Shown here one piece after another: positions 4,436 to 12,466 of a stretch of DNA of 39,896 nucleotides (position 1 is the stretch's first letter; every line of letters starts with the position of its first letter). The notes below the pieces were generated by a model. That model was not told the origin of the DNA, ran no database searches, and was given only the letters and a program-made list of their open reading frames with translations. The DNA is from an uncultured archaeon (GTDB lineage: Archaea; Nanobdellota; Nanobdellia; Woesearchaeales; CAIVOO01), in NCBI GenBank assembly GCA_903842985.1, contig CAIMOB010000041.1, positions 1-39,896 of the forward strand, given 5' to 3'. A program made the position numbers and the translations under genes.

Positions 4436-5371
4436 ATGCAGATAAAAGCCATTCCAGAGGACTTTGTTGTAAAAGAGATTATTGATTTAAAAATAAATGG
4501 CGGCAATTATTCATATTATACTCTTAAAAAGAGGGATTATACAACAATAAAGGCAATTTCTTTTATTGCTGAAAAGCTAGATGCCAATGTCAAAGACATT
4601 GGTTTTGCAGGAAACAAGGACAAAACGGCTGTGACAGAGCAGGCAATTTCAATATTTAAGGGCCCGGCGAAGGATTTCAACTTCAGGGATATTGAGCTTA
4701 AATTCCTGGGAAAAGGAAAAGAAAGGATAAATTTGGGGGCTAATAAAGGCAATTGTTTTGAAATTATTGTAAGAAACATAGAAAATAAACCTAAAAATAA
4801 AAAAGCCATAATAAACTATTTTGACGAGCAGAGATTTTCAAAAAACAATGCTGAAGTCGGGAAGGCAATTGTCAAATGCGACTTTAAAACTGCCTGCGAT
4901 TTATTGAATGATGAGAAAGAGGTTGCTGATTACCTCAAAATCAAGCCAGGCGATTTTGTGGGCGCATTGAGAAGGTTGAACAAAAGAATTCTGCGCCTTT
5001 TTGTTCACGCCTATCAGTCATACATCTGGAACAAGACTGCTGAAGAGTATCTGAAAAAAAATAAAGCAACAAAAATAAAAATACCCATTGCGGGATTTGG
5101 CACAGTGCTTGAAGGAGAAATTGGAGATATCATAAAAAATATTCTTGAAGAAGAAAAAATAAGTTTAAGAAATTTTATAATTAGGCAGGTTCCCGATATT
5201 TCAAGCGAAGGTAATGAAAGGGACTTGATCGCCGAAATCAGCAAGCTGGAGATTGGAGCGCTTGAAGCTGACGAACTGGATGCCGGAAATAAGAAAATAA
5301 AATTAAAGTTTTTTCTGCAGAAAGGAAGCTACGCAACAATGGCAGTCAGGCAGATTTTCCAAGAGCCTTGA
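4436..5371 (+). CDS. truD: tRNA pseudouridine synthase TruD
   Basis: A 311-residue TruD/Pus7-family enzyme that makes pseudouridine at position 13 of tRNA. The signature GFAGNKDKTAVTEQ is at 57-70, with Asp62 as the expected catalytic residue. The N-terminal EDFVVKEI matches the family start. NAEVGKAI and the inserted TRUD domain follow. It is shorter than many archaeal members (often near 400), mainly by compact loops. It converges with adk and overlaps it by 26 bases. It starts divergently from herA, with a short intergenic promoter region at 4356-4435. Confidence 0.93.
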   Translation: MQIKAIPEDFVVKEIIDLKINGGNYSYYTLKKRDYTTIKAISFIAEKLDANVKDIGFAGNKDKTAVTEQAISIFKGPAKDFNFRDIELKFLGKGKERINLGANKGNCFEIIVRNIENKPKNKKAIINYFDEQRFSKNNAEVGKAIVKCDFKTACDLLNDEKEVADYLKIKPGDFVGALRRLNKRILRLFVHAYQSYIWNKTAEEYLKKNKATKIKIPIAGFGTVLEGEIGDIIKNILEEEKISLRNFIIRQVPDISSEGNERDLIAEISKLEIGALEADELDAGNKKIKLKFFLQKGSYATMAVRQIFQEP

Positions 5372-6431: not shown

Positions 6432-6516
6432 AGCCCCCGGTGGGAGTCGCACCCACGATCTGCTGATTTCTTTCTTTGGTACAAGTCAGCCGCTATAGCT
6501 ACTAAGCCACGGGGGC
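6432..6516 (-). tRNA. tRNA-Thr (TGT) with 12-nt intron
   Basis: The complement folds as a tRNA: acceptor GCCCCCG/CGGGGGC, D-arm with A14, G15 and A21, anticodon stem GCTGA/TCAGC, T-stem GTGGG/CCCAC, discriminator T73 and no encoded CCA. The anticodon loop is 19 nt instead of 7. Removing CCAAAGAAAGAA at 6468-6479 leaves CTTGTAA with anticodon TGT (bases 6481-6483), matching codon ACA. T73 with G1-C72 and C2-G71 fits archaeal tRNA-Thr identity. Odd points: position 19 reads C instead of G and position 55 reads G instead of T, so the D-loop/T-loop contact is not standard. A TATA-like ATTTAAAT lies upstream near 6540. Confidence 0.88.
6468..6479 (-). other. canonical-position tRNA-Thr intron
   Basis: The 12-base insert CCAAAGAAAGAA lies between tRNA positions 37 and 38, the usual archaeal site. 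Flanks give a relaxed bulge-helix-bulge: CTT of the loop pairs with AAG inside the intron, with three-base bulges TAC and AAA at the two cut sites. Confidence 0.75.
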
Positions 6517-12303: not shown

Positions 12304-12367
12304 GCCTCAAAAGATTTTTAAATTGATTTCTTTTTTTATTATTTTATGAGCCCGTAGCCTAGTTTGG

Positions 12368-12383
12368 AGACTTTATCGAACAA
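12368..12383 (+). other. tRNA-Arg D-loop intron (16 nt)
   Basis: AGACTTTATCGAACAA lies between G19 and the next D-loop base. Its bulge-helix-bulge: outer helix CCTA/TAGG, central helix GTTT/GAAC (one G-U), bulges GGA and AAA, inner helix GA/TC with loop CTTTA. Cuts after the second base of each bulge give exactly this intron. Confidence 0.8.
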
Positions 12384-12424
12384 ATAGGGCGACAGCCTCC
12401 TAAGCTGTAGGTCGGGGGTTCGAA

Positions 12425-12439
12425 ATCAAAAGACGAAAG
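12425..12439 (+). other. tRNA-Arg T-loop intron (15 nt)
   Basis: ATCAAAAGACGAAAG lies between positions 59 and 60. Its bulge-helix-bulge is perfect: outer helix GGGGG/CCCCC, central helix TTCG/CGAA, bulges AAA and AGT, inner helix TC/GA with an AAAA loop. Cutting at AA^A and AG^T restores the loop TTCGAAT. Confidence 0.87.
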
Positions 12440-12466
12440 TCCCCCCGGGCTCGCTTTATACTGAAA

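What the first reader, a model, noticed from the sequence alone, without database searches (positions are those of the whole stretch)
12348..12453. tRNA-Arg(CCT) with D-loop and T-loop introns, both perfect bulge-helix-bulge
Removing 16 nt and 15 nt gives a normal tRNA. Both splice sites show a full bulge-helix-bulge with a 4-bp helix and 3-nt bulges, but neither is at the usual anticodon site. Two non-canonical introns in one short tRNA gene are known mainly from Thermoproteales, so this is notable in a DPANN-like genome and predicts a broad-specificity splicing endonuclease.
Basis: partly seen in the sequence, partly recalled or inferred. Interest (0 to 1): 0.7.

Follow-up and report, generated by a model that had tools for sequence, protein, structure and literature searches.

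The report
Twice-interrupted arginine tRNA gene
In a tiny uncultured archaeon, the gene for one arginine tRNA is broken by two short inserts in unusual places, each carrying the exact signal for the cell's RNA-cutting enzyme, and relatives show that such multiply interrupted arginine tRNA genes are common in this group although its cutting enzyme looks like the simple type thought to handle only ordinary introns.

Summary
Positions 12348-12453 encode tRNA-Arg(CCT) with a 16-nt D-loop intron (12368-12383) and a 15-nt T-loop intron (12425-12439). Removing both gives a standard 75-nt tRNA; ARAGORN finds tRNA-Arg(CCT) only in the doubly spliced sequence. Both junctions form a complete bulge-helix-bulge (BHB). 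With shuffled intron letters the D motif arises at 1.0%, the T motif at 0.06%, both together 0 times in 400,000.

The genome belongs to the same order as named Ca. Woesearchaeota genomes. In 96 distinct Arg(CCT/TCT) genes of that order I found 22 candidate D-loop and 25 T-loop inserts at these same sites; 13 genes, from 13 families, have both, and seven of these carry a third intron. The exon-intron helix covaries at the D site. A syntenic orthologue lacks both introns.

The endonuclease prediction is not supported. Nearly all relatives, including all 12 others with both introns, have one EndA gene, end-to-end similar to the alpha4 enzyme of M. jannaschii. Reviews link alpha4 to strict, canonical-site introns. 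So this is a new member of a known kind whose lineage departs from a published correlation. Splicing itself and EndA assembly are inferred.

The parts
12348..12453 (+). tRNA-Arg(CCT) gene with two non-canonical introns
   Evidence: Manual parse; BHB parser; ARAGORN after in-silico splicing
12348..12367 (+). exon 1: acceptor 5' strand, positions 8-9, D-stem 5' strand, D-loop to G19
12368..12383 (+). D-loop intron, 16 nt (AGACTTTATCGAACAA), between positions 19 and 20
   Evidence: same site in relatives
12358..12388 (+). D-loop BHB motif: CCTA(12358-12361)/TAGG(12385-12388) outer; GTTT(12362-12365)/GAAC(12378-12381) central; bulges 12366-12368 and 12382-12384; GA(12369-12370)/TC(12376-12377) inner
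   Evidence: (o4 i2, strict)
12384..12424 (+). exon 2: end of D-loop, D-stem 3' strand, uninterrupted anticodon arm (loop CTCCTAA, anticodon CCT), variable loop, T-stem 5' strand, T-loop to position 59
12425..12439 (+). T-loop intron, 15 nt (ATCAAAAGACGAAAG), between positions 59 and 60
   Evidence: same site in relatives
12414..12445 (+). T-loop BHB motif: GGGGG(12414-12418)/CCCCC(12441-12445) outer; TTCG(12419-12422)/CGAA(12434-12437) central; bulges 12423-12425 and 12438-12440; TC(12426-12427)/GA(12432-12433) inner
   Evidence: present in minimum-energy fold; o5 i2, strict
12440..12453 (+). exon 3: T60, T-stem 3' strand, acceptor 3' strand, discriminator G73
12315..12322 (+). TATA-like TTTTTAAA about 26-33 nt upstream of the gene (inferred promoter)
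   Evidence: sequence inspection; inference only

Best explanation
This is a functional, single-copy (as far as found) tRNA-Arg(CCT) gene of a Woesearchaeota-type archaeon. Its precursor is spliced twice, each intron being excised on its own BHB by the tRNA-splicing endonuclease EndA; the exons would then be joined by RtcB. The two BHBs form locally, by pairing of intron 3' parts with conserved exon tetramers (D-loop 15-17a; T-loop 54-57), stacked on the D- and T-stems. They can therefore coexist in one precursor and need no anticodon-arm recognition. Introns at these sites recur in many families of the order, so the gene is one instance of a lineage-wide habit of D-loop, anticodon-stem, canonical and T-loop introns in tRNA-Arg genes. 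Shown: gene anatomy, BHB motifs, covariation at the D site, presence/absence in syntenic orthologues, presence of RtcB and of one EndA type. Inferred: actual splicing, which enzymes cut and join, the tetrameric state of EndA.
For: Spliced product is a standard tRNA-Arg(CCT) and is only recognised after both removals. Both BHBs are complete; shuffled introns give P(D)=0.010, P(T)=0.0006, 0 of 400,000 for both. In 96 distinct Arg(CCT/TCT) genes located by exon anchors without requiring intron pairing, 22 had a D-loop insert and 25 a T-loop insert of the same placement; the tetramer at the BHB position of the intron fully pairs with its own exon in 19/22 and 22/25 cases, against 1.4 and 1.4 for random positions in the same introns. 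D-site pairs covary (GTTT:GAAC, GTCT:GGAC, GCCT:GGGC, ATCT:GGAT): 19 against a permutation mean of 14.2, reached 0 of 2000 times. At the T site support is mainly positional (22 against a permuted 19.8, reached 58 of 2000 times), with A57 genes carrying TGAA or TGAC. A syntenic orthologue next to the same downstream gene and GatE in Ca. Woesearchaeota SI034_bin151 (L189) has no insert, and one in Zod_Metabat.1155 (L267, JAFGDD010000018.1) has D, canonical and T inserts. The gene is the only CCT gene found by the pattern search and AGG is 60 of 129 Arg codons in ten neighbouring ORFs, so a mature product is presumably needed. RtcB is present.
Against: No RNA data: splicing is not shown. The assembly is 60 contigs at about 93% completeness, so a second CCT gene cannot be excluded. 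The minimum-energy fold of the precursor shows the T-loop BHB but not the D-loop BHB. The D-loop position 19-21 tolerates length variation in ordinary tRNAs, so retention of that insert is not absurd a priori. Gene counts in relatives are not an unbiased sample: regions were chosen from anticodon-arm matches, and at least one of the 22 D inserts (L112, 93 nt, no helix) is probably a false join.
Confidence: 0.93

Rival explanations
1. The inserts stay in the mature tRNA as expanded D- and T-loops (unspliced, structurally tolerated).
For: Length variation next to G18-G19 is normal in D-loops; an insert at 59/60 lies at the flexible end of the T-loop; no RNA data exist (own knowledge of tRNA structure).
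Against: Pairing covaries between exon 15-17a and the intron, which retention does not predict. The T-loop helix would bury T54-G57 needed for the elbow. Orthologues without inserts have the same exon sequence at the junctions.
Confidence: 0.03
2. The gene is a decaying or pseudo tRNA gene; the inserts are neutral insertions and another gene serves AGG.
For: The genome is incomplete, so a second gene could be in a gap.
Against: All stems pair (one G.T in the D-stem), conserved tRNA letters are intact, and both inserts are exact BHBs. No other CCT gene found. AGG is heavily used. The same arrangement occurs in many families.
Confidence: 0.02
3. The introns are real but splicing needs a broad-specificity heteromeric or loop-bearing endonuclease, as the first reader predicted (a divergent structural subunit escapes the profile search).
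For: Reviews tie multiple and non-canonical introns to (alpha-beta)2 and epsilon2 enzymes (PMC4090602; PMC6379350). In relatives 13 of 25 T-loop inserts lack an inner helix directly next to the bulge. In the control set one genome labelled Thermoprotei also showed only one match, so a compact beta subunit can be missed.
Against: In 193 relatives the search finds one EndA gene in nearly every genome (a few have two matches; 19, mostly less complete ones, have none). The N-domain profile agrees in 118 genomes. Two controls, Ca. Calditenuis and a Nitrososphaeria genome, show two genes and Micrarchaeota ARM-1 shows the fused form. The protein aligns end to end with M. jannaschii alpha4 EndA with one single-residue gap and no loop insertion. 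Both window motifs are strict.
Confidence: 0.12

Closest known systems
Multiple non-canonical tRNA introns of Thermoproteales (e.g. Pyrobaculum), described in PMC4090602 and PMC8450103
   Same: Short BHB introns outside the anticodon loop; two or three per gene; positions 20/21, 29/30 and 59/60 are already listed for archaea.
   Different: Here in a DPANN (Woesearchaeota) order, at a few fixed sites in tRNA-Arg, and with a single alpha4-type EndA gene rather than the alpha2beta2 enzyme.
Nanoarchaeum equitans tRNA splicing (split and intron-containing tRNAs)
   Same: DPANN archaeon with unusual tRNA processing through BHB motifs; its alpha subunit is the second-best sequence match in the structure database for the EndA here.
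   Different: N. equitans uses an alpha plus beta enzyme (3IEY) and trans-splicing; here the introns are in cis and one EndA gene is found.
Methanocaldococcus jannaschii alpha4 EndA (1A79)
   Same: Best match of the EndA protein, end to end, E = 2.9e-34; catalytic Tyr/His/Lys positions conserved.
   Different: Euryarchaeal alpha4/alpha2 species are reported to have only one intron per gene, at the canonical site (PMC4090602).
ARMAN-2 (Micrarchaeota) epsilon2 EndA with ASL loop (PMC6379350, PMC12397907)
   Same: DPANN-type archaeon; review lists its enzyme as broad in specificity.
   Different: Fused three-unit 390-aa enzyme; the Woesearchaeota enzyme is a single-unit protein of about 175-190 aa without inserted loops seen.

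Membership tests
Archaeal tRNA gene with non-canonical BHB introns | Removal of inserts gives a canonical tRNA | tested here: met
   ARAGORN Arg(cct) only after both removals
Archaeal tRNA gene with non-canonical BHB introns | BHB (two 3-nt bulges, 4-bp helix, flanking helices) at each junction | tested here: met
   both together 0 of 400,000 intron shuffles
Archaeal tRNA gene with non-canonical BHB introns | Introns not at 37/38 | tested here: met
   anticodon arm uninterrupted; sites 19/20 and 59/60
Archaeal tRNA gene with non-canonical BHB introns | Introns excised in vivo | not testable with these tools
   No RNA data available
alpha4-type EndA | Single gene, one PF02778 plus one PF01974 domain, about 170-190 aa | tested here: met
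   In relatives. In the window's own genome the gene is split over two contig ends (L032 N-terminal part, L031 C-terminal part), so there it is inferred from a 49-base overlap
alpha4-type EndA | Catalytic Tyr, His, Lys present | tested here: met
   alignment to 1A79: VYERG, EDHAK, STKKR
alpha4-type EndA | Homotetrameric assembly | not testable with these tools
   Needs biochemistry
Broad-specificity (alpha-beta)2 or epsilon2 EndA | Second structural subunit gene or fused units | tested here: not met
   with controls; a very divergent or compact beta subunit cannot be fully excluded
Broad-specificity (alpha-beta)2 or epsilon2 EndA | CSL/ASL loop insertion with conserved Lys | tested here: inconclusive
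   collinear with M. jannaschii EndA, no inserted loop seen; not compared with CSL or ASL sequences directly

The most novel reading that the evidence does not exclude
A whole order of DPANN archaea processes two to three introns per tRNA-Arg, including motifs without a complete inner helix, with a single alpha4-type EndA lacking a second subunit or specificity loop. That would break the accepted coupling of endonuclease architecture and intron diversity.
Probability: 0.5. Interest if true: 0.68.

Novelty: new member of a known kind. Interest (0 to 1): 0.5.

Why it matters
A review states that alpha4 and alpha2 endonucleases go with one strict BHB intron at the canonical position, and that multiple or displaced introns go with heteromeric enzymes (PMC4090602); another links extra introns to loop-bearing enzymes (PMC6379350). 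Woesearchaeota appear to combine the simple enzyme with multiple displaced introns, which makes the coupling testable with one recombinant enzyme and ready-made natural substrates. Practically, the tRNA finders used here miss this gene, so tRNA sets of DPANN genomes are probably under-annotated.

Tried and rejected
Rfam and ARAGORN on the unspliced gene: no hit. The first shuffling test used a wrong T-intron offset and was redone. The RF00005 search of the own genome did not list the window gene even at E = 10. The strict BHB parser failed on several long or relaxed introns and on the tRNA at 6432-6516; relatives it missed were read by eye or by exon anchors. A 12-base rRNA target for the conserved guide-like stretch in G001/G002 introns was sought in the 16S-bearing locus L017 only and not found. 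Literature searches for tRNA introns in Woesearchaeota or DPANN found nothing specific, but subscription papers are not held, so absence there is weak evidence of novelty.

Full report
What is there. The gene at 12348-12453 (+) reads as tRNA-Arg(CCT) interrupted twice. The D-loop insert is 12368-12383 and the T-loop insert 12425-12439. Both junctions are complete hBHBh' motifs: D, CCTA-GTTT-GG^A-GA(CTTTA)TC-GAAC-AA^A-TAGG; T, GGGGG-TTCG-AA^A-TC(AAAA)GA-CGAA-AG^T-CCCCC. The anticodon arm is uninterrupted.

More than chance. With exons fixed and intron letters shuffled, a strict BHB giving the same product arises in 1.0% (D) and 0.06% (T) of trials and never together in 400,000. ARAGORN calls Arg(cct) only for the doubly spliced sequence. 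A BHB-aware scan of both strands of the window scores this gene 84, the intron-free tRNA-Gly 88 and the next place 62; four shuffled windows peak at 64.5. The scan did not parse the tRNA at 6432-6516, so it is not a complete finder.

Where it comes from. The genome tool places the relatives used here in the same order, and one of them, G015, is the public Ca. Woesearchaeota archaeon SI034_bin151 (its locus L048 lies inside L189, JABGUJ010000001.1). So the window is Woesearchaeota-type DPANN.

Comparison with relatives. A search by the anticodon arm alone, which does not depend on D- or T-loop introns, and a BLAST search gave many Arg(CCT) and Arg(TCT) genes. In 96 distinct genes located by exon anchors, 22 candidate D-loop inserts and 25 T-loop inserts fall at exactly the window's sites, and 13 genes from 13 different families have both (window, L036, L040, L041, L128, L135, L138, L275, L280, L285, L286, L287, L290). 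By length, seven of the 13 carry a third intron: at the anticodon stem in L138, and at or near the canonical site in L275, L280, L285, L286, L287 and L290. The BHB parser adds L034 and L037 (one genus), L044 and L052. The 5' strand of the anticodon stem, about 29/30, is a further recurrent site. These counts come from selected regions and are not population frequencies.

Covariation. Without requiring pairing in the search, the intron tetramer at the BHB position fully pairs with its exon partner in 19 of 22 D inserts and 22 of 25 T inserts; random positions in the same introns would give about 1.4 each. At the D site pairing also exceeds every one of 2000 permutations between genes (mean 14.2), because exon tetramer and intron change together (GTTT:GAAC, GTCT:GGAC, GCCT:GGGC, ATCT:GGAT). 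At the T site the exon is nearly invariant, so permutation support is weaker (mean 19.8; 58 of 2000 reach 22). By geometry 17 of 22 D and 9 of 25 T inserts are strict including an adjacent inner helix; 13 T inserts have the 4-bp helix without an adjacent inner helix.

Orthology. In SI034_bin151 (L189) an intron-free tRNA-Arg(CCT) stands beside homologues of the window's 13461-14516 gene and GatE in the same order. In Zod_Metabat.1155 (L267, JAFGDD010000018.1) the corresponding gene, beside homologues of the 12467, 13461 and GatE genes, has D, canonical and T inserts. The sites are thus occupied or empty in positional orthologues.

Machinery. The own genome has EndA in two pieces at contig ends (L032 and L031, sharing 49 bases); the C33 piece runs into an unrelated ankyrin-like frame, probably an assembly join. 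EndA sits next to an RNase Z-like gene in L032 (named from its sequence, not searched). The joined protein is 174 aa and aligns end to end with M. jannaschii alpha4 EndA (1A79, E = 2.9e-34) with one single-residue gap. Of 193 relatives, 174 have a PF01974 match, almost always exactly one, including all 12 other genomes with both introns; the N-domain profile behaves alike in 118 genomes. Controls show two genes in Ca. Calditenuis and a Nitrososphaeria genome and the fused form in Micrarchaeota ARM-1, but only one in a Thermoprotei genome, so a missed compact subunit remains possible. RtcB is present.

How it works, shown and inferred. Shown: two local BHBs on an otherwise normal tRNA, covariation at the D site, and positional orthologues with and without the inserts. 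Inferred: EndA cuts each BHB and RtcB joins the exons. Because each BHB stacks on its own D- or T-stem, the two can form in the same precursor. The mature tRNA is presumably needed: AGG is 60 of 129 arginine codons in ten neighbouring ORFs and no second CCT gene was found.

Against the literature. Non-canonical positions including 20/21, 29/30 and 59/60 are known, chiefly from Crenarchaeota and Nanoarchaeota, and up to three introns per gene are known (PMC4090602; PMC8450103). The same review states that alpha4 and alpha2 species have only one intron, at the canonical position, and a later review rates alpha4 as narrow and links increased introns to CSL/ASL loops (PMC6379350). The present lineage departs from that correlation on sequence evidence.

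Limits. There is no RNA evidence. The genome is an incomplete, fragmented assembly. The oligomeric state of EndA is not known. The literature library lacks most subscription papers.

Noticed in passing
L153/L318 (G000:C57, about 4524-4636, minus); L319, L320, L321, L328: A type II tRNA with Ser-like acceptor end (GCC..., G73), a short T-loop intron, and variable anticodon loops among orthologues (CTTATAA, CTTATGA, CTTAAGA, TTGAAGC). In the window's genome the anticodon reads UAU. Its amino-acid identity is unexplained.
   Followed up: partly
L269 (G001), L271 (G002), L275 (G006), L279 (G022): The tRNA-Arg(CCT) genes of both same-family relatives and two others have a canonical-site intron of about 65 nt that looks like a C/D box sRNA (C-box-like GATGA, conserved AAGAGAGTTAG before a D-box-like CTGA/CAGA); the window's gene lacks it.
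   Followed up: partly
L030 (G000:C1), L154 (G000:C46): Other tRNAs of the same genome use the same two sites: tRNA-Lys(TTT) with a 15-nt T-loop intron and tRNA-Glu(TTC) with a 49-nt D-loop intron.
   Followed up: partly
L039, L128 (D-loop introns); L052, L077, L078 (T-loop introns): Longer introns of different genomes share stretches of 12 bases or more (e.g. CTTAGCCCCACG; GCTCGCTTCGCTCGC), which might reflect a small palindromic mobile element living in tRNA introns.
   Followed up: no
L031 (G000:C33, contig end): The C-terminal half of EndA is joined to an ankyrin-repeat reading frame right after a 49-base stretch shared with the other contig end; probably an assembly chimera.
   Followed up: no
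window 6432-6516 (minus): tRNA-Thr(TGT) with what looks like a short insert at or near the canonical site (GTACCAAAGAAAGAAATC); found by Rfam but not by ARAGORN nor by my strict BHB parser.
   Followed up: no
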